From Liolophura sinensis (Eukaryota; Mollusca; Polyplacophora; Chitonida; Chitonidae), in assembly GCF_032854445.1 (NCBI RefSeq), contig NC_088300.1:8620001-8684000 (forward strand): DNA of 64,000 nucleotides, read 5' to 3'. Shown one piece after another: positions 571 to 46,235 of this stretch; position 1 is the first letter of the stretch; each line of letters starts with the position of its first letter. The notes under the pieces were generated by a model. The model saw only the letters and a program-made list of their open reading frames with translations. It had not been told where the DNA came from and did not search any database. The position numbers and the translations under genes were made by a program.

Positions 571-3500
571 ATGTTTTGGTTTGCCACTGTAGTTGTTTGC
601 TTCATGCTGGCCGTTGTAGATGGCCAGGAAATACTTCAAAACCCCGACTTTGAATCCTTGGATAACTGGGCGTGTTATCACATAAAATGTACCTTATCAA
701 CTGACAAGCACTCCGGCAAACATGCAATGAAAGCTGCAGAAAGGTGAGACGTTAACGTGATGTTTTATGTGTCAAATATGTTATTCATCTCCGAAGTTTT
801 TGCGACATAATTATTACAAAATTAAGACTGGTACAAAACCACTGCACTGTTTTCTAATTGCCTTCAAACGACTTTTATTTGATTGTCTCTCCTTACGATT
901 TGTGGTAAATAAATACCACTAAAACCCAGCATCTTCCCGTAGATCGACGGTTGTAACGCTGTTAGCAAAATTCGTTGATGAAGATCGTACACATTTTCAT
1001 AATTTTCTAAAATTTACATTTTAATCGGTTTCGTCATGTGAATTATCAGTAGGGCCTACTGTGAAGGTGGTCAGGTGAGTGAGAGGACGTCATGCCGATG
1101 GTGAACCTGCGAGAGCTGGGTTTGAGCTCGTGACATGGGCAAGAGCTGTTTAATCATTTCATACCAATATGAGTGCATGTAACATGAGACTTCCTTGTTA
1201 TAAACAGTTAAAAGTATCAAGGAATATACATTCACTGACATGGAGCAGTTCTGGCTACAGAAGTTATCTGTGTCCTCCTATGTTCCACCAGGCCAAAATT
1301 ATTATTATTACGTACCTATATATTATAAGAAGTGTTAATCTGAATGTATTTCTCTGTCGACAAATTATGTTCAAGGTCAATTTACACGGCCCATGCTCGT
1401 TCACCAGGCACTACAATGGCCCCTTACAGACAGACCGTGTTCCAGCAGACAGAATTATTACCGAAGTTCCTTACGGATAGGCCGCGCGTGTTCCACCAGA
1501 TATAACTACTAGTATCATGGACGTCCCTTGCGGACAGGTCGTGTTCCACCAGACACAACTGCTACCAAAGCCCCTTACAGACAAGTCATGTTTCATCAGA
1601 CACATCTATTATTAAAATTCCTGACATAAAACCTGTGTCCTACCAGACACATCTATTACCCTCACAGACTGGCCGTGTTCCACCACACACTACTATTATC
1701 AATATGAGCTACGGACAACATGCGTTCCCCCAGACACAACTATTGCCTAGGTCCGTTACGGACAACATACGTTCCCCCAGACACAACTATTGCCTAGGTC
1801 CGTTACGGACAACATGCGTTCCACCAGACACAACTATTGCCTAGGTCCGTTACGGACAACCTCTATTTCTCCAGGCACAACTGTTACTAAGGTCTGTTAC
1901 GGACAACATGCGTTCCACCAGACACAATCATTACCAATGTCCGTTACGGACAACCTCTATTCCTCCAGACACAACTGTTACTAAGGTCTGTTACGGACAA
2001 CATGCGTTCCACCATACACAACCATTACCAATGTCCGTTACGGACAACCTCTATTCCTCCAGACACAACTGTTACTAAGGTCTGTTACGGACAACATGCG
2101 TTCCACCAGACACAACCATTACCAATGTCCGTTACGGACAACCTGTGTCCCAACAGCCGCAACTATTACAGAGTTCCCTTAAGTCCGTGTTCCACCAGGC
2201 ACCACTATTACCAAGGTCCGTTAAGGACAGCCTGAGTTCCACCAGACACATCCACACAACTACTGCCAATATTTCTTTCACACAGCCTATTCTCTTTCCG
2301 ACTAGACACAACTATTACCAAGGACCCTTGCAAATTGTCAATGTGAAAGAAGGTCACGTGTACAACATGGAGGCCTGGATAAAACTCCTGAACGACAACG
2401 GAAAGTCTCAACATGTCCAGATTGAGATGGCTTATATCCTTAACAACGGTACGAGCTACGATTACAAACACAAATTGCGATAGTTGTTTTTACACATATG
2501 TGATTCATATTAAGCATAACGTCAAAGCATTCTAGGTGAAGTTACAGACCTCAGGATGAAAATGTCAGTGGTATTCTACACGGAATTGAAATAAACCCTA
2601 TCAACACTTGACTGTTGTTCTATAAGCTGCTAGTGAATAGACTTTAGCACGTGGTTAATCCACTGAATAGATCACTTCAGCACGTGGTTAATCTATTGAA
2701 TAGATCACTTTAGCACGTGGTTAATCTACTGAATAGATCACTTCAGCACGTGGTTAATCTATTGAATAGATCACTTTAGCACGTGGTTAATCTATTGAAT
2801 AGATCACTTTAGCACGTGGTTAATCTACTGAATAAATCACTTTAGCACGTGGTTAATCTACTAGATAGATCTCTTTAGCACGTGGTTAATCTACTGAATA
2901 GATCACTTTAGCACGTGGTTAATCTACTGAATAGATCACTTTAGCACGTGGTTAATCTACTGAATAGATCCCTTTAGCACGTGGTAAATCTACTGAATAG
3001 ATCACTGGTTAATCTATTTGCGATAAATCCATTACGATTATGTATATTAATTTTACTTGATATTCAATATAATATTCATTGTAATAAATTTAGGTATCAT
3101 CAGGTGTACCTAATGCATAAAAATTTACAGTAAAGTATATAAGACAAGTAGTCAACTTAAGGTAATTAAAACGGTTTAATATACTTGATAGTAATACCCA
3201 TAATACAGTCGAATTAATCACTATTACAGGCATGAAAAGGTATTCGATTATTTCATTTTTTCTTTAAGGTCACATTAATTACGTGGCAGTGGCTTATCGT
3301 AACCCGGTCACTTCTCATTCCGGATGGATTCATCTGAAAGGCCAACTGGTCGTACCCAAAGGTCAGACTGTATTCATGTTGTCATAGAAACGATGTGCGT
3401 TTATTACAAATCACTGCGCAGGGGCTCACTTTACAAAAACTCTAAAGGTAACCGTTTCACAAGGAAAATATCTGGCTATCGGCTAAAGATTTTTGTCTTA

Positions 3501-6500
3501 GATTTTGAAAGTTAGACCAAAATCCCTAGCCAGCCCTGGAGAAGTCTAGGAGACAGCAAAGTTCACTTCAAAAGCGTTGCGTGTCTCATTTTTATAGTTT
3601 ATATATATTGAATCTAAGAAAAGAGGAATAAATCACTTTCTTACAGCACATGAAAGTCTTTTTATGCTCACAAGCCACCCAAACACCTGTGTTGTTGTTG
3701 TTTCGTTGTTCATGTTGTGAGAATTATTGCCCTGTGTTAACAATCTGTGCCAAAAAGGAACTGAAGGAGAAATTATTACATTTTTTCTGGTGTTTATACA
3801 TAGTAATTTAAGATATATATATTTTGGATATAATTTACCAATTAGCAGCATTGATTCAACCAATCAGACTGATGCAGAGCGGCCACATAGCCGGCTAGGC
3901 TAAGTATGGTGAGCTTTAGAGAGTTTTACTTTTGTGAAATGGCCTAGTCAGTATTTTTCGTAGCCTACTTACGGTGGTCGCCTAAATGATACTTGGACCT
4001 TAGACGACTTTTTGTGAAAGGGACCCAAGCGTCGGTAAGTTATCGTCATCAACTGCCTTGTAAATTTTGTATTTTTCTCTAGTGTAACATAGGTGAGGGG
4101 AAGTTACAAATGAGTCATCAATTTAGGCCTAGCTGTATGCCTATATATACCCATTTCTATCCCAACCAAAACCATTGAATTTATACAGAAACGCAAACGC
4201 TGTCTGAAACAGGTAAAAAATTGTGGGGCCCCACTGGCATATCTAAGGCGTAATTATATGAGAAAAAATAGGTATAAGTGTACTTTATCTATTGGTATCC
4301 ATATGTGTGTCAGGTCTGAAGGAGAGCCGAGTGTACTTCCAAGGTCCTGACCCGGGCATAGACTTCCTGGTGGACGCCGCTTCCATGACGGAACTACACT
4401 TAAACTCTGACAACTGGAAACCTGAGGCTAACGCACGTATAGACCAATACAGAAAGAGCAACATTCATATCAAGTGAGTCAAAATATAACATCCATATCA
4501 AGTGAGTCAAAATACAACATCCATATCAAGTGAGTCAAAATACAACATCCCATATCGACTGAGTCAAAATACAACATTCCATATAGACTGAGTCAAAAGT
4601 AACACTCGCGTATCGGGCTAGTCAGTTATATAATTCCTGTGAACCGATTCATGATAATACCTTAGTTTAATGCATGGGTCGAAGTCGGGAGACCAGGGAT
4701 CAAACCCGGGTCGGGCCATACCAAAGCCTTAAGAAATGGTACTTGTTGCGACCTTGCTTGGCCCTCAGCACTGAGAAGTTATAGCAACGAAACATGACTG
4801 GTTGGCCTGGTGTCCGTATATCGCGACTGGTTACGACAGCACTTTGGCACAAGAAGACATAGCATATGTACACGCACGTAAGAACTCTTCATCGCCATAG
4901 GACGTTAAGTTGGACGTAAAACTCCAAGCATATACGTATATAAATACATACATAACTTCGGGGATAATATTGTTAATCAATATCAGTGATGAGGATGGAC
5001 TACATGTATATTGTCTTGGTCCAGTGCAGTATCACCTGGCACTTCATTTATCTGATAAAAGTTATTGCTTACGCCGTTCTGAGAGGGAAGTCGTATTAGG
5101 TCGTCAGATATCTAACAAACCGTCTTATGTCAGCCAGGAGCTGAATGTTGGGCCTTTTGGACAATGTTAACAGTGCGTAGCCCTGATTGTGGACGTGGAA
5201 GCTGATTTTATGCTTTGATTTGAGTATCTTTATTTTCTTTCTAAGAGTGACAACAGATGCTGGAGTCAACAAAAACTCGGTTTCTATTGATGTGAGTAGT
5301 CTTACAACTTGCTAGTTCCTATGATAGATCCTCTTTGAGCTTGTGTTAATTCTTTTACATTGTCAGTAGCCTAGTTTCTTATAACCCTATATTGGTGCTG
5401 CAGATTGCATGGTTAAACATATGAATTATCAGATAAAGTTCGAATAAAACTGTGTAAAAAAAGAAGAAAAGAATATGTTCCTTGGGTGGCTTTCTATCAA
5501 GCGTGTTTGTTCGCCATCTTTGCTTTAGCTATAGGATCTCTGCACCATGCACAGTTTTCACCAACAGCTAGCTTGTTTTGGTTGTCCCAACTCCCGCTGT
5601 CTTGTCAGCCATTAAATGGAACAATTATATGGTTAGATATTTAATTGGCATGCCGCAAATGTGTCAATCCATTAACTGCCTGGTTTCTTATCTCCCCGAA
5701 TCTCTACAAAGTGTATCTTCAAAGTGATGCGTCAGGCCATTAATGGGCACCATGCATTATAAGCCAAAAAAGTGACCCTTCATTCTATTTCTTTTATTTC
5801 TTGAGATCTCCAGTGACCCTGTAAACCCGTTTGGCTTCTGTCACAGGTTTCTCAGAAGACTCATGCGTTTGCTTTCGGAACCGCTGTGGTTGCCAAAGTC
5901 ATCAACAACAACAATGGCGGCTCAGACCATAAATATCGTCAGTTTATCTACGACAACTTCAACTGGGCAGTGGCGGAAAATGCTCTGAAATGGCATCAGT
6001 TGGAACCAAACCGTGTATGTTCCCAGTTTCAACCAGCTATCCGCATGCCTAGCACTGACTGATACTTACTATTCACATGCCTTGCACAACTTGTACTAAC
6101 TATTCAAATGTCTAGCGCCAATTTGTGCAAACTATTTATATTGCCTAGCACCAACGTATACTAACCATTCATATGCCCAGCGCCAACATATGTTAACCAT
6201 TCATATACCTGTATACGCCAACAATATAATTAAGACGTACATCATGGAGAGAAAACTCAGAGCAGCGACAGCAGCGTGATAGCTGACCAATGGTCACACG
6301 TAACCGGTGAAATGCGGCCTTTCTTCAATTTACCTCAGTTAGGGTTTTATTCTAATTGTTCATGTAAATACATAAATAGTAACAAATAACACGTCCCTAG
6401 CATCATGGCTTAAGCAGAATTAGGTAAAAAATGCAGTCATGTTAATTGCTATTTATTAGACGTCACTGGTCTAGAATTACTCAGATGCTGTGCGGTCATC

Positions 6501-9500
6501 ACATTTAATATATGTAATAGTATTAAAACAATGTAGCATAAATGTAGCGATATAAGCTACAATAAATATAACAAAGTATAAAACAATATGTCTAGCACCA
6601 ACTTATACTAACTATTAAAATGCCTAGCACCAAGTTATACTTACTATTCATATTCCTAAGCTGCTACATGTACATGGTACATGTATGAGGACAACAGCTT
6701 AGGATCGTATGCGCTTGTCAGGCAAAATCACGCATTGATTATACTTTTATGCAATTATCTCTAATCTATATGGTTCAACGATTGGGTTTGGCAATATGTG
6801 ATAATATATCAAGTTTTCGTAAAAGGTTATATTGTAAAAATTCAATCAACAATTTGATTTTCTTTTTCCAAATAGGGACATATAGATTACGCAACAGGGG
6901 AAAAGGCAATCAAAATACTGAGGAGTCATGGGTATGTTATTTGTTATTGTGCATGTGGGTCAAGGTCAATGGTTTTATCCAAGGCCTGAGCGGCAAGTGT
7001 AACTGGGCACGGCTTGGAGCCGCCCTTTGGATTGTATGGTTTAGTGGAGCACTGTTCAGTACACAGCTTAAAACCATTTTCAATGGAGTAATATAGATAG
7101 TAAACAGCCTGGAACCGAGTTTTGGTGGAGGAATTCAATATACAAAGCTTGGGGCTGGGTTTTAGTGGAGGGATTCAATGTACACAACTTGGGACAAGGT
7201 TTCAGTGGAGGGATTCAATGTACACAGTTTGGGACCGAGTTTTAGTGGAGGAATTCAATGTACACAACTTGGGACAGGGTTTTAGTGGAGGAGTTCAATG
7301 TACACAGTTTGGGACCGAGTTTTAGTGGAGGAATTCAATGTACACAACTTGGGACAAGGTTTTAGTGAAGGAATTCAATGTACACAGCTTGGAGCTGGGT
7401 TTTAGTGAAGGAAGTCAATGTACTTAGCTTGAGACCAGGTTTTAGTGGAGGAATTCAATGCACACAGCTTGGGACTGGCTTTTGGAGGAGGACTACAATA
7501 TACACAGGTGGGGACAAAGGTTTAGGGAAGGAGTTCAATGTACACAGCTTGTGGCTGGGTTTTATTGGAGGAATTCAATGTACACAACTTGGGTCAAGGG
7601 TTTAATGGAGGAATTCAATGTACACAGCTTGTGGATGGGTTTTAGTGATCTTAATAAAGTGTAGACAGGCTGGAACCATGGTTTTATTTGGCTGAATATA
7701 GTGCTCACAGCTTGGGAACGAGATGTTAGGGAGTTGGATAGAGTGTACAAAACTTGGGACTGGGGTTGTAGTGGTCTGAATGGATATTTACATAACTTGA
7801 GGCTCGAGTTTAATAGAATGTATACAGCCTAGTACCAGGGTTTTAGGGGGTGGAATAGTTACACAACTTGGTAGCGGGTTGTTAGAGTGGTGAATGGAGT
7901 GTACAGAGCTGGGAGCCGGGGATTAGTGCTGATGAAGGTAAAAATATTGAGCTGCCACCCTTGGTTACTTGTAAGATAATGTTATGTTAGAGCTGTTGTT
8001 TTGATTAACAGGTACAAATATCTACCTATGGCTTTGTCATGTGACGTCCACATAAACAAATTACACGCACATATAGGCTACTCACTAGATTGGTGGTCGC
8101 AATGATTGCAATGCAACCGTGGAACACAGGCCAAATATTCTAGGCTGTCTCAGTGCAGACAACTGGCCAGGTTGTGGGTTCGAGTCCAGTCCGGGCACTT
8201 CACACCACGTAGGTTTGTCAGGTAACTTACTTGGTGTGGTGGGTTTCCATCGATCTCCAGTTTCTAAAACTTGACCACAGTCCTGTAAGTGCCATGTTCA
8301 TGACCTCGTGACTGAAATCAAATCAAAGGAGGTTAAACAACAGTCAGTCATTACCTCTATAGGGTTCTAAACAACAACTATTACCTCTATAGGGCGTCAA
8401 ACAACAATCATGTCATTACCTCCTTCGGGCGCTAAATAACAGCCAATGATTACCTCTAAAGGGCGTTAAACAACAGTCATGTCATTACCTCTATAGGGCG
8501 TCAAACAACAGTCATGTCATTACCTCTACAGGGCGTTAAACAACAGTCAGTGATTACCTCTATAGGGTTTTAACCAACAGTCAGTGATTACCTCTAAAGA
8601 GCGTTAAACAAGTCATGTCATTACCTCTATAGGGCGTTAAACAACAGTCAGGCATTATCTCTATAGAGCGTTAAACACGGTCAGCCATTACCTTTATAGG
8701 GCGCTAAACAGCAAGCAATCATTACCCATGTTTTTGTCCCAGTGTAGTTCACCCAAGCACACGCAGCGCTATCGGTCACATCACTGATCATCTTGGTCTG
8801 TCTATCTTGTTTGTAGACTAAAGGTTCGTGGTCACAATCTCATATGGAATGGTGCTCATCATCTTCCCTCCTGGGTCACCAAACTACCACATGATGAACA
8901 AAACAGCGTCGTGCAGAAGCACATACACGACACAGTTCTACGATACAAAGGCCTGTAGGTGACTAATTTCTACTCTTTACTTTTGTGATCTGGCATAAAC
9001 ATTGCTCGATTTATTTTCACTGTGGCCATGTTAATTTCATGTATCAAGAATAAAATGATATGATAACTGAATTCAAGACGGATGAAACCAGCTCATCGGC
9101 AGTGATAATTCAAAGTGAGTATACATAAACAATTCATGAGAAGGTCTTTCGGTAACCTGCGAATGGTCGTGGGATACTGGCGATGTGGTACACGTTAAAT
9201 CCCAGTCTAACATATTTTCTGAAATGTGCTTGAAAAGTATCTAATAAATAAAGTAAAGTTATATAAAATAAACGAAATACGGTGTCTTCAGAGTCAGTAT
9301 ATAGGGATACGTCTGTAGATTAGCATTTCCTTGCGCATACCTTCACCGCATCCTTCCTCCTATAATCACTCTCCGTATAGCTGCATCTCAGGTCAAGGTC
9401 AACAATTACAGCTTTGTGCCAGTGCTTAATGGTTTATAAGCCATTTCACAAATACATGTAAAACTTTTCCGGCACTTGTATAATACTTCTCCCGCACTTA

Positions 9501-12500
9501 GTACAATACGTCTCCGGCAATTGCATAATACTTTTCCGGCACTTGAATAATACTTCAACGGCGCTTGATTATTACTTCTATGGTACTTGTATCATACTTC
9601 TCTGGGACTTCTATAATACTTATCTGGCACTTAGTACAATACTTCTCCGGCACTTGCATAATACTTCTCCGGCACTGGTATAATACTTTTTGGGCGCTTG
9701 TATCATGCTTCTCCGGCACTTGTGAATTACTTCTCTGGCACTTGTATCATACTTCTCTGGGACTTGTATAACACTTCTCTGGTACTTAGTACAATACTTC
9801 TCCGGTACTTGTATAGTACTTCTCTGGCACCTGTATGATACTTCTCCGGTACTTAGTGCAACACCTCTCAAGTACTTAGTACAATACTTCTTAGGCACTT
9901 GTATAGCACTTCTCTGGCACCTGTATAATACTTCTCCGGTACTTAGTGCAATACCTCTCAAGTACTTAGTACAATACTTCTTAGGCACTTGTATAATACT
10001 TCTCCGGCGTTTAGTACAATATCTCTCAGGCACTTGTATAATACTTCTTCGGTACTTAGTACAATGCTTCTCAGGCACTTGTACAATATTTCTCCGGCGC
10101 TTAGTACAATACCTCTCCGGCACTTGCATAATACTTTTCCCGCACTTGAATAATACTTCTACGGCGATTGTATATTACTTCTCTGGCATTTGTACCATAC
10201 TTCTCTGGCAATTGTTTAATACTTCTTCGGCACTTATTTCACTTGTATAATACATCTACGGCACATATATAATACTGTACCGGCACATGTATAATACTTC
10301 TCCGGCATTTGTATCATTTGTATTTGCATAATACTTCTCTGGCACTTATATAATACTTTATCGGCACTTGTGTAATATTTCTCCGGTACATGAATTTTTT
10401 CTCCGGCAGAGTGGAGCATTGGGACGTTAACAATGAGATGCTTCACGGGGACTATTTTGAGAACACGTTTCACGACCCGGATTACACCAAGAAAGTTTTT
10501 AAAACAGTCCATCAGCTTGACCCCAGTGTAACCTTATTCCTAAACGACTACAACGTAGTGGCATCCGGTGGAAGTACCAACGTATGCACACGTTTTTATG
10601 TGATGTTTATATTTTCTTCTTTATTTTTTCTTTAAGAGGTGGCAGCGGGGAGAAAAGGATTTAAATGTTTGGATTCTAACATGGTCGTTTAGAGACCATA
10701 TTCTTTATGATGATTTTTTCTGGCTATTTTATCATTAATTTCATTGAAAGTAATCTGTATACTGAATAAATAATAAGTATAATAATAAATTGGCAGTCTT
10801 CTGCGTTAGGCTACATGTAATAATACATGAATAGACACAATATCCAGTTTTGAGATACACATGCCTTAACATCATCACTCCAAAATATGGCCGATAAAGC
10901 CTACCTTGCATTCTGAACATGTATTTAACCGAGCTTTTCTCAGTGGTTTTTCCATGCACCGTCTGGTGACCTTTACTTCATATTTGCTTTTCTCCTCCTT
11001 TAAAGCATATAACTTATTTCTACTTCCTCGCACTGTTTCTTTTTGTATCCCCTCATAAGCATCGAGATTGATCTCTCTTTTGTGTTAATTAGTATTACTC
11101 TGTGAATAACTCTTTGTTTGTTATAATTTATATGGAATGTTCAACCATCACTACTGAATCCTTCCCCCCATGCGAGCTGTATATAGGATGTCCAGCCATC
11201 ACTACTGAATCCTTCCCCCCATGTCAGCTGTATACAGGATGTTCAACCATCACTACTGAATCCTTCCCCTCATGCGAGCTGTATACAGGATGTCCAACCA
11301 TCACAGCTGAATCCTTCCCTCACGTCAGCTGTATATAGGATGTTCAACCATATCGGCTGAATCCTTCCCTTATGTGAGCTGTATACAGGATGTTCAACCA
11401 TCACTACTGAATGCTTCCCTCATGTCAGCTGTATACAGGATGTTCAACCATCACTAGTGAATCCTTCCCCTCATGCGAGCTGTATACAGGATGTCCAACC
11501 ATCACAGCTGAATCCTTCCCTCACGTCAGCTGTATATAGGATGTTCAACCATATCGGCTGAATCCTTCCCTTATGTGAGCTGTATACAGGATGTTCAACC
11601 ATCACTACTGAATGCTTCCCTCATGTCAGCTGTATACAGGATGTTCAACCATCACTAGTGAATCCTTCCCCTCATGTGAGCTGTATACAGGATGTTCAAC
11701 CATCACTACTGAATGCTTCCCTCATGTCAGCTGTATACAGGATGTTCAACCATCACTAGTGAATCCTTCCCCTCATGCGAGCTGTATACAGGATGTCCAA
11801 CCATCACAGCTGAATCCTTCCCTCACGTCAGCTGTATATAGGATGTTCAACCATTACTACTGAATCCTTCCCCAAGTCAGCTGTATACAGGATGTTCAAC
11901 CATCACTACTGAATCCTTCCCTCCCCTATGTCAGATGTATTTAGGATGTTCAACCATCACTACTGAATCCTTCCCTCATGTGAGCTGTATACAGGATGTT
12001 CAACCATCACTACTGAATCCTTCCCCATGTCAGCTGTATACAGGATGTTCAACCATCACTACTGAATCCTTCCCTATGTCAGCTGTATATAGGATGTTCA
12101 AGCATAACTTCTGAATCCTTCCCCCCATGTGAGCTGTATACAGGATGTTCAACCATCACTACTGAATCCTTCCCTCATGTCAGCTGTATATAAGATGTTC
12201 AAGCATCACTTCTGAATCTCTCCCCCCCATTACACATGTGAGCTGTATATAGGATGACTAAGTATCACTATGCTATATCTTTTCTCTAAATGTGATTGTT
12301 AATAATGAGACTGATCGGACTGGTGGTCTTTGGTAGGATTACCTGGCTCAGGCTAAAGATTACAAGGCGTCACACACCCACGTCGGGGGGCTTGGAGTTC
12401 AGTGTCATTTCAATAATCAACCGGTGCCAGCTCTGATCAAGGTGAAAAACATGGCATAAATTGTATTCGAACTTCGAATTTAAACATCTTTTAATTTCAG

Positions 12501-13912
12501 CTTAGGAGAAAATATAGCAGAGTTACACTTGTCAGAAACTCGCACAAATGAAATACACCGTAAGGGCAGCACACTGGAAAACCCATGTGTCAGTCGTTTT
12601 CTACATTCACGTCTTTCGGTGGTGTCCGAAGCCGACGCCTGTCAGCAGTTTCCTCCAAGAAGTTCTGGCGGCGGTTTCCTCCACGCACATCTGTCAGTAG
12701 TTTTTTCCACGAGCGTCTGTCAGCGATTTCCAATACCAATGTCTGTCAGCGGTTTCCTACACCGTCTGTCAGCGATTTCCTATACCAACGTCTGTCAGCG
12801 GTTTCCTACATCCACGTCTGTCAGTGGTTTCTTACACCAATGTCTGTCAGTGGTTTCCTACACCCGCGTCTATTCGCAGTCTTTTTTTCCAGCCATTTCT
12901 GAGCGTGGCTAAATGTAAAATAAATAGAAAAGACCAAACAAACAAACAGTAAACATCCCAACAGTCAGCACCAAAAGTACAACAGGGCCTATTTGATGAA
13001 AAGTGAATATATCTTCTTATGTGTGGACAGTAAAGTGACCAGAAAACGAACACACAAACCTGCATATCTGTCTAACATTTCCTCTCGCAGATAAAACACA
13101 GGTAACATGTAATTGACCGCCAACAAGATCGATGAAGGCAGGGTTTATTTATATATTTATATTACAATATGTTTGCTGCACCAGGAAAGACTGGATACTC
13201 TCTCGCAGGCGGGATTGCCCATCTGGGCGACCGAGCTGGACGTGAAGACGGACAATGAGCACGAGCGGGCGGATTGGTACGACATCGCTTATCGGATGTT
13301 GTTCTCGCATCCGTCGGTTGAGGGCATCCTGGTTTGGGGATTCTGGAGTCAACATCATTGGCGCGGAGAGGCTGCAGCTTTTGTCTCGGGGCCAGAATTT
13401 AAGGTTTAGTACATACAAGCAATTAAAACAAAAAGGGTACGTTGAATGTCAGATGAATGCTAGAAGCGTAAGAGGTGCTCTAATGTCCAGCTTGCGTCGA
13501 GCCCATATGATGTGCTTTAGGAAATTTGCCCTCGAAGTGACATATATTTCTCAGAGCATTCTCCTACATCCGGGATCCCAGCACAATGTTATATTATAAC
13601 AGTTTTCCATAAATGTTAATGTTTCAAAGCAATTATAAACAGGAAATTCCCGTATAGCATTGTTTAGGACAGACCATTTTATCTTCTGTTATCAAGGTTA
13701 ACGCAGCTGGCCAACACTACCTGAACCTGGTGAACAAAGAGTGGAGAACTGAAAACTCTCATCCCCTTTCCAAGGGCACTGATTTCACGTTCAGAGGTTT
13801 CCGAGGTCATTACGAGGTGAAGGTGAAGGTCAACGGGAAGACAGTGCGGACGACTTCTTTTGACCTCGGCAAGAATGACCATAGTTTGAGCTTGCATGTC
13901 AGCCACGATTAA
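571..13912 (+). CDS. GH10-A: secreted GH10 endo-beta-1,4-xylanase-like protein with CBM4/9 module, intact
   Basis: Twelve coding exons: 571-743, 2306-2448, 3269-3361, 4314-4473, 5246-5291, 5847-6014, 6876-6931, 8817-8954, 10410-10581, 12337-12441, 13185-13403, 13697-13912. All junctions are GT-AG and the sum is 1689 nt, 562 aa. Residues 1-18 (MFWFATVVVCFMLAVVDG) are a signal peptide. Exons 1-4 (to about residue 190) form a CBM4/9-like beta-sandwich starting QEILQNPDFE. The GH10 barrel runs from about residue 206 to 491, with ENALKW (substrate-site N and K), RGHNLIW, the acid/base Glu335 in VEHWDVNNE and the nucleophile Glu435 in IWATELD. A C-terminal extension follows. The family cleaves internal beta-1,4-xylose bonds; secretion as a digestive enzyme is inferred. 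Start choice: the only ATG that opens a signal peptide. Donors of exon 3 (GTCAGA) and exon 11 (GTTTAG) are weak but fixed by comparison with GH10-B. The family call is firm; exact substrate is not shown. Confidence 0.93.
1385..2305. repeat. 46-47 bp minisatellite derived from the exon 2 acceptor
   Basis: About 20 degenerate units in GH10-A intron 1. A typical unit reads TTCCACCAGACACAACTATT followed by an ACCAAGGTCCGTTACGGAC-like half. The block CAG|ACACAACTATTACCAAG is the splice acceptor and first coding bases of exon 2 at 2306 (HNYYQGP), so the array looks like tandem copies of the intron/exon boundary. Each unit carries an acceptor-like pyrimidine-AG. GH10-B has no such array before its exon 2. 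Confidence 0.85.
2630..3018. repeat. 33-bp minisatellite, 11 units, each with a CACGTG E-box
   Basis: Near-perfect units in GH10-A intron 2 of the form ACTGAATAGATCACTTTAGC followed by ACGTGGTTAATCT. Every unit contains the palindrome CACGTG, giving 11 evenly spaced sites, 33 bp apart. Any regulatory role is inference; the array itself is plain in the sequence. Confidence 0.92.
4460..4623. repeat. 28-bp tandem repeat copying the exon 4 end and its splice donor
   Basis: The first unit is the last 14 coding bases of exon 4 (from 4460) plus the donor GTGAGT at 4474 and a short piece of intron. Units two and three repeat CATATCAAGTGAGTCAAAAT almost exactly, placing identical donors at 4474, 4502 and 4530. 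Two or three more diverged units follow. Reading past the first donor gives an immediate in-frame TGA. Confidence 0.88.
4690..4965. mobile_element. Dispersed SINE/MITE-like element, family B, in GH10-A intron 4
   Basis: This stretch matches 26990-27215 in the same orientation. Shared blocks include ACATGACTGG-like, GGTGTCCG-like, CACAAGA, a CTCTTCATCGCCATA-like block and a tail of TAAATACATACAT. The reverse strand around 4700-4722 holds a GGTTTGATCCC-like pol III B box, suggesting a tRNA-related origin. Two clear copies plus one fragment (25490) show it is dispersed. Confidence 0.6.
6040..6660. repeat. About 33-bp minisatellite split by an inserted element
   Basis: Units of the form ATGCCTAGCACCAACTTATA plus CTAACTATTCAT run from 6040 to about 6205 and resume at about 6590-6660 in GH10-A intron 6. 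The gap between the two blocks is occupied by a dispersed repeat that also occurs at 34120 and 34425, so the array was probably continuous before the insertion. Confidence 0.75.
6215..6588 (+). mobile_element. Dispersed repeat C copy 1, inserted in a minisatellite
   Basis: Shares AGAGCAG..., GTGATAG, then AATGGTCACACGTAA, a CCGGTGAAAT-like block and CAGTTAGGGTTTTA with copies at 34120-34290 and 34425-34615. Full ends and class are not determined; no open reading frame is present, so it is non-autonomous. Confidence 0.55.
7085..7960. repeat. 40-bp minisatellite, about 20 units
   Basis: Units such as AGGAATTCAATGTACACAAC followed by TTGGGACAGGGTTTTAGTGG in GH10-A intron 7. The core 7130-7660 is regular and the rest degenerate. 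The short open frames here read through repeat units and are not genes. Confidence 0.9.
8085..8345 (+). mobile_element. tRNA-derived SINE in GH10-A intron 7
   Basis: A canonical pol III B box, GGTTCGAGTCC, sits at 8177-8187 behind a tRNA-like head (GGCTGTCTCAGTGCAGACAA). The body continues to a tail of GGAGGTTAAACAACAGTCA. There is no complete cloverleaf, so this is a SINE head and not a tRNA gene. Confidence 0.7.
8330..8725. repeat. About 35-bp minisatellite grown from the SINE tail
   Basis: About 11 units of ATTACCTCTATAGGGCGTTA followed by AACAACAGTCATGTC. The GTTAAACAACAGTCA core is the 3' end of the SINE immediately upstream, so the array apparently expanded from the tail of that element. 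Confidence 0.82.
9470..10409. repeat. 22/23-bp minisatellite, about 40 units, running into the exon 9 acceptor
   Basis: Units CTTGTATAATACTTCTCCGG plus CA, alternating with CTTAGTACAATACTTCTCCG forms. The last unit blends into TTTTTTCTCCGGCAG, the acceptor of GH10-A exon 9 (10410). The pyrimidine tract and most of the splice acceptor therefore consist of repeat sequence. A 169-codon minus-strand open frame (9620-10129) is produced by the repeat. Confidence 0.9.
10582..11130. other. Unique part of GH10-A intron 9
   Basis: AT-rich intron sequence after exon 9. No gene, RNA or repeat is recognised before the 50-bp array starts. Confidence 0.4.
11135..12260. repeat. 50-bp minisatellite, about 22 units, with higher-order structure
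   Basis: Units of ATGTTCAACCATCACTACTG followed by AATCCTTCCCTCATGTCAGC and TGTATACAGG in GH10-A intron 9. A block of four distinguishable monomers (around 200 bp) recurs at about 11296 and 11496, and part of it again near 11800, which shows amplification by multi-unit steps. CAGCTG occurs in many units. Confidence 0.92.
12590..12890. repeat. 26-27 bp minisatellite, about 11 units
   Basis: Units of CGTCTGTCAGCGGTTTCCTA plus CACCAA in GH10-A intron 10. Overlapping open frames of 105-127 codons here are repeat-encoded and have no recognisable domain. Confidence 0.85.
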
Positions 13913-18500: not shown

Positions 18501-21500
18501 TTCTGGTACAATGTATATAAGTGTGTAAAGACAATATTACATTCTCTTTGAGAAAAATACACTGTTATGAGTTTTAAGACCAGCATTGATATATTATTAT
18601 TTCAGGCCACACTAATTACGTAACGGTGGCAAACCGGAACCCCGTCAACTCTCACTCCGGCTGGGTTCACCTGAAAGGTCAGCTGGTCGTGCCTACAGGT
18701 AAGTCAGTATAAATTGTTACCGTAACTTGTAAATTATATTTACGTTGCAGGATGGTTAAATGGTATCTGGTCTTGTGAAAACTACTGCACGTTAATTGTC
18801 AGGAAACGTTTTTGTCTAGCGGATTGTTCTTGGTCATTGCCTTACGCTTATTTCTTCCAGGTGTCAAGCAGAGCCGAGTGTACTTCCAAGGGCCTGACCC
18901 GGGCATAGACTTCCTGGTGGACGCCGCTTCCTTGACGGAACTACACATACATTCCAACAGCTGGAAACCTGAGGCTGACGCCCGAATTGACCATTACAGG
19001 AAGAGCAACATCCATATAAAGTGAGCCAGGTGTTACACCAATATCAAGTAAGGTCAAACAGAAAATCCATGTCAAGTGAGACAAACGGAAATTTCATGTC
19101 AAGTGAGTCAAACGGAAAATTCATACCCAGTGAGTCAAAAGCAAAATCCACGTCTGGTGAATCATGAGAAAAATCCATGTCAAGTGAGTCTAAAAGAAAA
19201 TTCATGTCCAGAGTGCCAGAAGGCAAATCAGTTTTCAGTGAATCGAATCATGAATCCATCCTGACTTACTTTATATACCTCTTTTTCTTGCTTCTTTTTT
19301 GGTTTGTGGTAAACGTTCAGTATACGTATGCATACATATGCACCAATTACCTAGTTTCAATTTGCTTCACTCTTCAGAGTGGCGACTGACACCGGCGTCA
19401 ACAAAGACTTGATTTCTATTGACGTAAGTATAAAAATTTTTCAATTGTGAGACTTACCTCAAAGGTTAGTCGAATATCTCTCCTGTTTTACACATTTGTT
19501 CAAACGTTTTCAACATGATTCCGTTATGTTAACTTTTTCGGTGTTCTCTATAGTTGATTCCCTTTAAGAGGTTCGTACAACAAACTTTCCCTGTATGAGT
19601 GGTTGCAGCATTTTACAAACTCTGTTTTAAACTTGTATACCATTGTCATTAAGGTTTTAGCCCAGATTATGAAAACGTTACGATTTTAATGAACTTCGAA
19701 TTAAGATTCTCGAACATCTACACGATCTGACCGACATCATGGTACATGCATGTACAAAGGACAATTTCGCTATTAATGTATATAACACACCACTTTTTCT
19801 TCTGAGTAATGACCCTGTCCCTCTCTCTGGCTGGCTGTTCCCATCTTAATACACCGCTTTATTCTGTGACCTTATTTACACGAGATTCATCCTGTATAGT
19901 CTATACTTGTATTGATCTGCACTTAAATAGCCTACATTGGCGCAATTTCATGAGGTTTTACAGAGGTTATATTTCTAACCTTATTCATGTGCCTTTTGAC
20001 CTTATATATACTAACATTCATTTGAATATGAATCAGTAACGCCATTTGTGGACCTATTGAAAGGAAATTCATGAACTTTTGCTGAGATGGTCAACTAAAG
20101 CCGCATGGAACACGCAGAGGAGTGCTACAGTTCTGTTTTTAAAAGTGTTGCTCTGCGGACCGTGGTCTAGTACTTGGAGGTGCTTACCTTCAATCGCTAT
20201 AGAATACACGAAGTGCCGGTTCAAATCCAACCTTGGACGGATTATTTGTAGATTTTCCCGCTGTCACTGCTTGTGGACCTTTGGTGATAACAATTAAGCC
20301 GTCGATGACGCTCGTGTGTGAAGGTTGCAAATCCTTACTTTCGTTGAAGACCACTTGTTTTCCACCAGTAGGGTGTGAGTATGAGACCCCGGGATCACTA
20401 AACTGTCATAAGTCAGACTTAGAAACTTCAAAACCGCTTACTGCTCTGAATTTGTTGCTTACCTTAGATATTTTTATTTTAATACCTAGAGTTGTCCTAG
20501 ACTTATATGACAAGATTGAAAACTGTCGCGTAAAAAATCAGCTCAGGGATTATACCACAAGTTGAGACTAAATCTGACTTTAGTCTAAGGCTGCTTTGTG
20601 GTCCTGGGGCCTGTATATCATATGCGAGAAATTTCGTCATTATACATTGCCAAAGGTTGGTGGTTTACCTCGGGCTCTCAGGTTTTCTCCACCCACGAAG
20701 ACTGCCATCGTATGACCTTAGGCAATAGTGAAATAAATAGTTAATTAACTAGGTAAATAAATAAATATATCGCAGTTATACCAAAAGCTCTTACGGCCGT
20801 GCGTGATTGTGTGACGTTTTTACCGGAACATACATGTACGATGGTGGTTATTTCCGCTTAGACTGAAATAATAACTGCAGATGGTTATTTTTACTTATTA
20901 TGCCTGAAATTAAGACACTGATGGTTACTTTTTACTTACTGAAGATAAAATGGTGGGTTAATTCTTTTAGGTATCCCAGAAAACTCACGCTTTCCCTTTC
21001 GGAACCGCTGTCGTTGCCAGCATAATAAACAACAACAACGGTGGTTCGGACCAGAAGTATCGCCAGTTTGTCTTTGACAATTACAACTGGGCAGTTACCG
21101 CGAACGCTATGAAATGGCACAGTATCGAACGCGTCAAGGTGAGCTGTTTTCTTCATAGCGCGTAAGGTGCTGGTCAAATTTTCTGTAGCTCACGGTATGT
21201 GAAATGGTACGGAAGAGAACTGCAATACAACTGCTAAAAGCAGTCTGCATGCAGAGTTAGTAAACATTTTCTAGAATTACATGTTTTTAATCCTTTGCGG
21301 TCTCTTAAAGTCGTGTATGTATTCAAATTTACCGACCGATTTGCACTACTCGGTTAAATGACCATTTACACGGCCTTTAGAACACCAACGCATATTACTC
21401 GTGTTGATTACACATATTGTTGATTATTATTTTTTTTATTTATTTCATAAATATCATATATGAAGGGGGGGGCAGTTAAATGGAATGCTTGTTATGGGTT

Positions 21501-44600: not shown

Positions 44601-46145
44601 GTCATAAAAAGTAATTTGAGAAGTTCCTGCAGGAAAGAGGTGTCATTTGTGCATCTGCAACAGGGTCAGACAGATTTTTAGTAAATTAATGTCAACAAGG
44701 GTTGCCTAACACTTTGCACAAGTCATATGACACAGTAGGACTGTTTTTACCTTTGATGGCAAAAGAGTTCCAACTGAAAACTCCCCTATTCTTTTTGTAG
44801 GGTCAGTCTGTCGTCCGTTCTTTGTTGTATATGTATGCACAGGCCTGTTGTAACATCACTGGTCACAGCAGAAGGCGGTGGCACATGTACCGTCCCTGTC
44901 TGCAGTATTACATAAATTTATTCCTGGTGGCATCATCAAAATAACTATGCCGAGATATTCTAAACTGAACTGCATTTTGAGAAGTGGAAAAAAAAAACAA
45001 GAATACATGTGTGTACATAAATATATGTTCTTGCTTTTGGTGAATGTCGTGGTGAAGAACTCATACTGCAGATACGCATATTTGTTGATCGCGTGTGAGC
45101 ATGCCATAAATTGGAACTGTGTTTACAGTGAGCAGTGGCGGAAAGCCTGCATGTACAAATGAGTTAATGGTAAAAATCTTTTGTTCATCATAAAAAGTTC
45201 ATGTTTTCTCTGATGTGACAGGACCAGACCCATGAAGTCAGTAATGGTTCCGAATCTCACACCTGATGTTTTATTTATGGTTTATTGTCTTTATGTACTA
45301 TTTTGGTCACTTCTCATCTCATTTTCTGCTAGTCATTAAACAGTGTATTGTCATAAATTTGGAATGTTTCCTTCATTTTCTGCTTTCTGCACTTATCCTG
45401 TGATTAATCAACATTTGTATGTCATGCCAGGTGAAGTTGACTTTTCATGTTATAAGTGTTTTTATGGAAAGAAAAAAAAAGATATTGTAATAGACATGTT
45501 TATATTGTAAGCTTGATGTGAATATGGAGGATTAGTATAAATTATGTTGTTCTAGTAGTCACTTACAAGGTCGATTAGGACATTGTTTCATGAGAACTTA
45601 TTCAGTATAAATGTAGTTGTAAAATGAATTATCGTGTGTTGTCCATTTTGGGCTCATGGGTTTCATACTTGGTCATGGACAGCTGGGAAATATTACCGAT
45701 GAAAGAAACAATTGCCCAAGTGACACAAATAATACTATTTCAAAGAAATAAAATAAAACAAAAAATATTGGCAAGTAGAAAAAATGAATTATAGAATGAG
45801 TTGTATGGCTAATGTTTTAGCAAGGTGACAGTCCACAAGGCAAACAATGTATTTTGTCATCAGGCCTTATGAGTTTTGTGATTTATGATTTCAGTTTTTG
45901 AATCTGACCTGCTAGGGCGGCCAGAATGTAGCAAGGCTCCACCTAAAACGCTACAACCTCTGGAGACCATTCTAGCCACAATGAAGTTCAACCCCACGAT
46001 AAAGCAGGTGAAAGCAGACGAAAACCTTAGCACAGAAGCCGCCCGGGTTATCAACACTTTGCCGGACTTGTCCTTTATGCAAGCAAAGGTCCTTATGTTT
46101 CCCCTGAGGACAGTGAGTGAGGGAAGTGTGGGTGGTGGAACTTGA
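35691..46145 (+). CDS. AFTPH: Aftiphilin, clathrin/AP-1 accessory protein
   Basis: Coding exons 35691-37574, 37724-37902, 38685-38820, 39449-39613, 42144-42201, 43807-43881, 44413-44427, 45895-46145; 2763 nt, 920 aa, close to the vertebrate protein. Aftiphilin acts at the trans-Golgi and endosomes, binding clathrin and the AP-1 gamma ear. The N-terminus SASPPPLDEAP followed by DDDDDDDFGNF is the family signature. The long first exon is acidic, Ser-rich and disordered, with DDFGDF/DEFGDF gamma-ear motifs at about residues 497, 540 and 582 and WxxF motifs at W306 and W481 (alpha-ear type). The C-terminal clathrin-binding domain includes FDWNGSGLTNPLD and ends LPDLSFMQAKVLMFP. The ATG at 35691 starts the conserved part; the in-frame TTG codon upstream is not a start. 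Odd points: a 15-nt microexon, a 43-codon internal duplication and a 75-bp duplication at the end of the last exon. Confidence 0.93.
37185..37442 (+). repeat. AFTPH: In-frame 129-bp coding duplication in AFTPH
   Basis: GATTTTGGAGATTTTAGTC starts copies at 37185 and 37314. Each codes 43 residues, DFGDFS..P...EKLPSESQ, then SFSDNNVAECHDEVDD. A third DEFGDFS lies at 37437. The copies differ at few bases, so the duplication is recent and adds one gamma-ear motif. Confidence 0.9.
38005..38235. repeat. About 19-bp minisatellite in AFTPH intron 2
   Basis: Roughly twelve degenerate units of GTGCAGTGTGCTTACATGT. The two overlapping open frames with Cys-Val-Leu repeats come from it. A poly-T run of about 29 lies at 37948-37977. 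Confidence 0.8.
39904..40030. mobile_element. 127-bp MITE/foldback in AFTPH intron 4
   Basis: Ends are GGGGCTGGTTTCATG and CATGAAACCGGCCCC, 15-bp inverted repeats with one mismatch. Pairing extends inwards: ACTTGGTGTTAAGTAGCCCT matches the complement of AGGGTTTACTTAACTAAGT with small gaps. No coding capacity. Confidence 0.75.
40031..42143. other. Rest of AFTPH intron 4
   Basis: AT-rich intron of 2.1 kb. No exon, gene or array is recognised; 40440-40530 faintly resembles a decayed SINE (ACATAAGTGAAATATTATTT). Confidence 0.4.
44413..44427 (+). CDS. AFTPH: AFTPH 15-nt microexon
   Basis: CATTTACCAG|ATGAATGGGACTGGG|GTAAGA adds residues EWDW within D-EWDW-(G/V) while keeping phase. Exons 6 and 8 also join in frame without it, so it is a potential cassette. 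Good acceptor and donor on both sides support it, but no transcript is available. Confidence 0.6.
44430..45894. other. AFTPH last intron
   Basis: About 1.5 kb. A 94-codon open frame at 44878 has no recognisable domain. No repeat array is seen. Confidence 0.4.
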
Positions 46146-46235
46146 CAGCCATACATGGCCAAGGTCCTTAGGTTTCCCCTGAGGACAGTGGGTGAGTGAA
46201 GTGTGGGTGGTGGAACTTGACAGCCATACATGATG
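46086..46235. repeat. AFTPH: 75-bp tandem duplication across the AFTPH stop codon
   Basis: Copies start at AAGGTCCTTA in 46086 and 46161, sharing GTTTCCCCTGAGGACAGTG and GTGGGTGGTGGAACTTGACA. Copy 1 holds the last 19 codons and the TGA; copy 2 falls in the 3' UTR. Confidence 0.9.

What the first reader, a model, noticed from the sequence alone, without database searches (positions are those of the whole stretch)
1385..2320. Minisatellite made from the exon 2 splice acceptor of GH10-A
The units repeat CAG|ACACAACTATTACCAAG, which is exactly the acceptor and first codons (HNYYQGP) of exon 2 at 2306. About 20 acceptor-like sites therefore precede the real one. The paralogue GH10-B lacks the array. 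This is amplification of an intron/exon boundary rather than random intron DNA, and could create cryptic splicing or repeat-encoded protein inserts.
Basis: seen in the sequence. Interest (0 to 1): 0.75.

Follow-up and report, generated by a model that had tools for sequence, protein, structure and literature searches.

The report
Splice-site minisatellite in a mollusc gene
A short stretch at the start of an exon of a mollusc carbohydrate-digesting enzyme gene has been copied about twenty times inside the neighbouring intron, a kind of repeat known from amphioxus as a "mirage", and the same thing is seen at a few other splice sites of this genome, about as often as chance would give.

Summary
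Intron 1 of GH10-A carries about 20 units (mostly 47 bp) whose first ~31 nt resemble the start of exon 2; 17 of 19 listed units keep an AG just before it. The match beats all 2,000 shuffles; a whole-genome DNA search found the array only here. The match lies on the exon side; the units' intron side is not recognisably the present intron end. GH10-B and seven other paralogues keep the exon but show no array at that acceptor, so the array was copied from the exon. This is a tandem duplication at a splice junction, the structure called a "mirage" in amphioxus (PMC3087553). It recurs: donor 4 of GH10-A and -B, donor 3 of GH10-D, donor 6 of a GH9 gene. Of 28 arrays in 156 intron stretches, 5 involve a junction against 3.8 expected from random seeding, so targeting is not shown. 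Four of 17 unit acceptors outscore the real one, but only the weakest gives an open in-frame insert: repeat-encoded protein is unlikely. No RNA was available. New member of a known kind; my searches listed no case outside cephalochordates.

The parts
571..743 (+). GH10-A exon 1
   Evidence: intact 12-exon frame
1403..2288 (+). Array of about 20 degenerate units, mostly 47 bp; each about 12 nt ending in CCACCAG plus about 35 nt like the start of exon 2; part 1710-2144 is homogenised with a 94-bp two-unit higher order
2289..2305 (+). Pyrimidine-rich tract and AG of the real exon 2 acceptor, not recognisably shared with the units
2306..2448 (+). GH10-A exon 2; its first ~31-35 nt are the source of the units
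4459..4598 (+). 28-bp array made of the end of exon 4 and its donor (ATATCAA|GTGAGTCAAAATA); exon 4 ends at 4473; two copies keep an identical 9-nt donor at 4502 and 4530
19007..19229 (+). 27-bp array at the exon 4 donor of GH10-B (exon ends 19020; Tandem Repeats Finder span 19044-19229); two copies have CAAGTGAGT while the real donor is AAAGTGAGC
9459..10409 (+). 22-bp array in intron 8 of GH10-A that runs to the exon 9 acceptor (TTCTCCGGCAG); units have TTCTCCGGCAC, so the acceptor looks like a last unit with C to G
   Evidence: moderate similarity, score 21, 0 of 60 shuffles as good

Best explanation
It is a mirage-type minisatellite. On the GH10-A lineage a short segment at the intron 1 / exon 2 junction (an AG and about 35 nt of exon 2) was tandemly duplicated and then expanded and partly homogenised by slippage or unequal exchange inside the intron (inferred from the two-unit higher order, the homogenised core and the degenerate edges). 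The outermost copy stayed as the real exon because the conserved reading frame pins it. The units are not translated. Splicing is expected to use the last acceptor (inferred), with any use of unit acceptors giving mostly stop-containing transcripts. Nothing shows that splice sites are targeted; random seeding in an array-rich gene is enough.
For: Exon-side match of units and exon 2 beyond all shuffles. Exon 2 with its acceptor is homologous in nine GH10 genes, while Tandem Repeats Finder shows no array at acceptor 2 in the other eight and the junction-against-intron score is 34 in A and 12-16 in the six others whose intron 1 is bounded (B, C, E, F, H, I), so the direction is exon to array. Intron 1 is 1,562 nt in A and 765 in B; about 890 nt of A's is array. 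Nine core units are 84.5% alike pairwise, four 5' edge units 65.6%. The same structure at other sites: donor 4 of A and B, donor 3 of D, donor 6 of a GH9 gene with about 62-bp copies that take in 37 nt of exon. Per-array null: 5 seen, 3.8 expected, P(5 or more) 0.33. Regular splicing in amphioxus mirages according to PMC3087553 section 16.
Against: The intron side of the units does not match the present intron end, so the first duplication is seen only through its exon half. Units are no closer to the A exon than to the B exon over 31 nt (0.69 and 0.70 for the core), so a birth on the A lineage rests on absence in B. The real acceptor scores above only 35 of 163 acceptors and four units outscore it, so use of the last site is assumed from homology and reading frame, not shown.
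Confidence: 0.85

Rival explanations
1. The array is a cryptic-acceptor decoy: unit acceptors compete with the real one and lower or tune GH10-A expression by producing stop-containing transcripts.
For: 17 unit AGs, 4 of them outscoring the real acceptor (1875 at 8.79, 1969 and 2063 at 7.18, 2199 at 6.93, real 5.49); 4 of the 5 in-frame ones meet a stop. In the donor 4 array of A, reading past the real donor gives AAG TGA at once.
Against: No sign of selection to keep it: only A has it, edges are degenerate, two of 19 units lost the AG. Amphioxus mirages are reported not to disturb regular splicing.
Confidence: 0.12
2. Splice junctions are preferred birthplaces of minisatellites in this genome, through a mechanism tied to transcription or splicing.
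For: Four apparently independent junction arrays in two gene families, and two more arrays that run up to an acceptor (GH10-A acceptor 9; GH9 g4 acceptor 5).
Against: 28 arrays give 3.8 expected against 5 seen, P 0.33; with the two abutting cases counted, 7, P 0.06. Junction windows hold a repeat copy in 5 of 312 comparisons, interior intron windows in 920 of 5,823.
Confidence: 0.1
3. Chance resemblance between an ordinary intronic array and exon 2.
For: The intron side does not match.
Against: None of 2,000 shuffles reaches the score; outside the array the best match of the junction probe in the window is the homologous exon of GH10-B; the last degenerate copy leads up to the exon.
Confidence: 0.02

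Closest known systems
[quoted passage not shown]
   Same: Tandem units at a splice junction, acceptor or donor side; 3' end of the intron plus 5' part of exon 2 in BflGb6; unit length 10-72 bp in Adh3; cluster edges left out of homogenisation; AG/GT in many but not all units (PMC3087553 section 16; PMC3902484 one passage)
   Different: A mollusc, not a cephalochordate; about 20 diverged units here against 3 and 6 in the two BflGb6 haplotypes; length instability and normal splicing are not shown here
Intronic minisatellites / VNTRs in general (TERT intron 6, ABCA7)
   Same: Tandem repeats in introns (PMC3948165 and PMC5954066 seen only in search listings)
   Different: [quoted passage not shown] here the units copy the junction
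Intron gain by tandem duplication of segments bearing splice signals
   Same: Tandem duplication that copies splice signals (discussed in PMC3087553 section 16; PMC2891723 and PMC4974935 seen only in a search listing)
   Different: No new intron here; an existing intron is lengthened and the exon 2 acceptor is at the homologous place in the paralogues

Membership tests
Mirage minisatellite | Tandem repeat units copy sequence that spans an exon-intron boundary | tested here: met
   Exon side clearly (31 against a best shuffle of 26), AG kept in 17 of 19 units; intron side beyond the AG not recognisable. For donor 4 of A and donor 6 of GH9 g10 both sides match.
Mirage minisatellite | The authentic boundary is at the edge of the array | tested here: met
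   The last degenerate copy begins at 2254, exon 2 at 2306; in intron 4 of A the first unit is the exon end
Mirage minisatellite | Homogenised inside, degenerate at the edges | tested here: met
   84.5% pairwise in nine core units, 65.6% in four 5' edge units
Mirage minisatellite | Length polymorphism, somatic instability | not testable with these tools
   one assembly only
Mirage minisatellite | Normal mRNA splicing in spite of repeated splice signals | not testable with these tools
   no RNA; the 562-aa frame is intact when the last acceptor is used
Intron gain by tandem duplication | A new intron position | tested here: not met
   Exon 2 starts at the homologous AG in the nine GH10 genes compared

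The most novel reading that the evidence does not exclude
Mirages are an ordinary, recurrent product of minisatellite turnover in molluscs too, and arrays can take over the splice site itself: acceptor 9 of GH10-A and acceptor 5 of a GH9 gene look like the last array unit turned into a working acceptor. Such genes would be natural multi-copy splice-site substrates in which the spliceosome picks the outermost of several equal or stronger sites, and a source of new splice sites.
Probability: 0.25. Interest if true: 0.6.

Novelty: new member of a known kind. Interest (0 to 1): 0.42.

Why it matters
It extends a repeat type described in amphioxus to a mollusc (as far as my searches go) and gives a first rough rate, four apparently independent cases in 156 intron stretches of two gene families, with a null that explains it. 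Intron 4 of GH10-A is a clean natural test of splice-site choice: identical donors 28 nt apart, only the first of which gives protein.

Tried and rejected
Tested and rejected: (1) that the sequence just upstream of the array (1331-1400) is the original intron end: 786 of 2,000 shuffles as good. (2) That splice junctions are enriched as array seeds: 5 of 28 against 3.8 expected. (3) That the units encode an in-frame insert. (4) That the units are a fossil of the older exon: at the 10 sites where A and B differ in the first 35 nt, most units follow A at 4 (1, 4, 10, 24), B at 4 (19, 28, 30, 31), are split at 34 and follow neither at 35 (14 of 19 units, those without gaps); overall identity to A and B is equal, so only suggestive. 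(5) A duplicated donor in a gene that resembles aftiphilin (46086-46232): the frame also reads on to a stop, so it may be a last exon; left open. (6) Lesser scores: in GH9 the sites g7 donor 6 (23), g9 donor 6 (22), g12 donor 6 (24), g6 acceptor 2 (23) and g2 acceptor 7 (22) are single matches of 11-14 nt, although 0 of 40 shuffles did as well for four of the five; g10 donor 2 (25) is one 20-nt exon-side match, 17 of 20, with 1 of 40 shuffles as good. In GH10, E acceptor 5 (23, 1 of 60 shuffles) was not looked at further. None of these is counted as a case.

Limits of the counts. Exon ends come from paralogue comparison, GT/AG and phase, not from RNA. GH10: 81 introns with both ends placed; exons not placed were left out (D exons 1, 5, 7; E exon 8; G exons 1, 5 and 7-12; the last exon of C and D). 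GH9: five sites undetermined and dropped; of the 75 stretches eight run over an exon that I did not place (six over exon 4, g12 over exon 3, g4 over exon 7), and two sites are compared twice, so 150 comparisons are 148 sites. Of the five junction cases, only A donor 4 and g10 donor 6 overlap the junction by the Tandem Repeats Finder span; A acceptor 2, B donor 4 and D donor 3 are counted because the junction itself matches the neighbouring repeats. Arrays counted have period 15 or more and score 80 or more; two in A intron 6 have the same kind of unit and may be one. Interior windows of one array are not independent.

Full report
Setting. The window lies in a 609-Mb genome at C6:8620001-8684000. 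Eight molluscan haemocyanin beta-sandwich matches stand in a row on C8, so the organism is a mollusc, probably a gastropod (that the family is molluscan, and the last step, are recalled). The gene is GH10-A, 12 exons, 562 aa, intact, with CBM4_9 and GH10 domains. GH10-B follows in the window. A protein search with exon 2 gave nine places, A and B among them; I fetched the other seven (C to I) and built partial exon models.

Observation. Units are mostly 47 bp; Tandem Repeats Finder reports 1677-2250 with period 47 and 1710-2144 with period 94. Written out from the AG, 19 units can be listed before exon 2, 17 of them with AG directly before the exon-like part, plus one degenerate copy at 2254. 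Consensus of the 14 units without gaps: gtgttccaccag|ACACAACTATTACCAAGGTCCGTTACGGACAACCT; exon 2: ACACAACTATTACCAAGGACCCTTGCAAATTGTCA. The score of array against junction is 36; the best of 2,000 shuffles is 28. The match is on the exon side (31, best of 1,000 shuffles 26); the intron side fails (815 of 1,000 shuffles as good).

Direction. Exon 2 and its acceptor are homologous in nine GH10 genes. Tandem Repeats Finder finds no array at acceptor 2 in the other eight (intron 1 of E and F has other repeats away from the acceptor), and the junction-against-intron score is 34 in A and 12-16 in B, C, E, F, H and I; intron 1 of D and G is not bounded because exon 1 was not found. So the exon was the source. 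Intron 1 is 1,562 nt in A and 765 nt in B. Core units are 84.5% alike, the 5' edge units 65.6%.

Not alone. I compared the 40 nt around each splice site with the adjoining intron. In GH10, 162 sites of 81 introns: A donor 4 scored 60, A acceptor 2 34, D donor 3 31, B donor 4 26; the next is 23. In 12 GH9 genes, 150 comparisons over 75 intron stretches: donor 6 of g10 scored 51, the next 25. The g10 array has about 62-bp copies of the end of exon 6 (37 nt) with its donor. The donor 4 regions of A and B align as one 292-nt match at 80% that runs into both arrays, and two B copies have CAAGTGAGT where B's own donor is AAAGTGAGC, so these two arrays may share one origin. That leaves four apparently independent cases in two gene families, plus two arrays that run up to an acceptor and may supply it (A acceptor 9; GH9 g4 acceptor 5).

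Are junctions special? If each array is collapsed to one unit and placed at random over its intron, 28 arrays should overlap a junction 3.8 times; 5 do (P of 5 or more 0.33; with B intron 4 left out, 4 against 3.6, P 0.50; with both abutting cases counted, 7, P 0.06). Interior windows hold a repeat copy in 920 of 5,823 cases, junction windows in 5 of 312 comparisons. So random seeding is enough on this sample, which is small.

Splicing. With a weight matrix from the modelled acceptors, the real acceptor 2 scores 5.49, above 35 of 163. Of 17 unit acceptors 4 score higher (1875, 1969, 2063, 2199); of all 75 AGs tested in the intron 8 score as high or higher. Five of 17 are in frame with exon 2 and four of those meet a stop; the one left open (2246) scores 2.04, above 1 of 163. 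In intron 4 of A, the real donor and two copies are identical over the 9-nt donor (8.48 each), and use of either copy gives AAG TGA at once. In GH10-B, eight GT sites past the real donor score above the 5th percentile of modelled donors, and six of them score above the real one (7.11, 7.14, 8.48, 7.27, 6.64, 8.48 against 6.28). Whether such sites are ever used cannot be told without RNA.

Known kind. [quoted passage not shown] PMC3902484 (one passage read) adds PGBD5 and TnC. The structure here meets the anatomical features. My eight paper searches listed no mollusc case; the lists are capped (one search showed 15 of 83), the library lacks most subscription journals, and I opened only three papers in part. 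The third, on cone snail gene introns (PMC3862624, passages), speaks of dinucleotide to tetranucleotide repeats, not of junction copies.

Verdict. Real, a member of a known kind in a new phylum as far as my searches go, most likely neutral, with a testable splicing question attached.

Noticed in passing
window 4459-4598 and 19007-19229: Both GH10-A and GH10-B have an array made of the exon 4 donor; six of B's copies and sites past the real donor score above it.
   Followed up: yes
L003 (GH10-D), intron 3 just after exon 3; gene strand is minus: Degenerate repeats of about 45 bp around the exon 3 donor (ACAACCG|GTAAATCAAA).
   Followed up: partly
L020 (GH9 gene g10), 3375-3589: About 62-bp repeats of the end of exon 6 with its donor, in an unrelated enzyme gene.
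   Followed up: yes
window 9459-10409; L013 2915-3124: Arrays that run right up to an acceptor, whose AG and upstream tract look like the last array unit.
   Followed up: partly
window 1734-2150: Six of nine core units of the intron 1 array fold into a perfect 5-6 bp hairpin (GTCCG TTA CGGAC) that none of the four 5' edge units tested has; may bear on why this unit form was amplified.
   Followed up: partly
window 6045-6210: Array 30 bp after the exon 6 donor whose units contain TACTAAC, the yeast branch-point motif (recalled).
   Followed up: no
window 46086-46232: 75-bp duplication over the end of a coding stretch that resembles aftiphilin (name recalled; no Pfam match), with a possible donor ACA|GTGAGTGAGG or a C-terminal end.
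   Followed up: partly
window 571-13912 (GH10-A) against GH10 C to I: GH10-A has arrays in 8 of 11 introns, more than any of the paralogues examined on the same chromosome.
   Followed up: no
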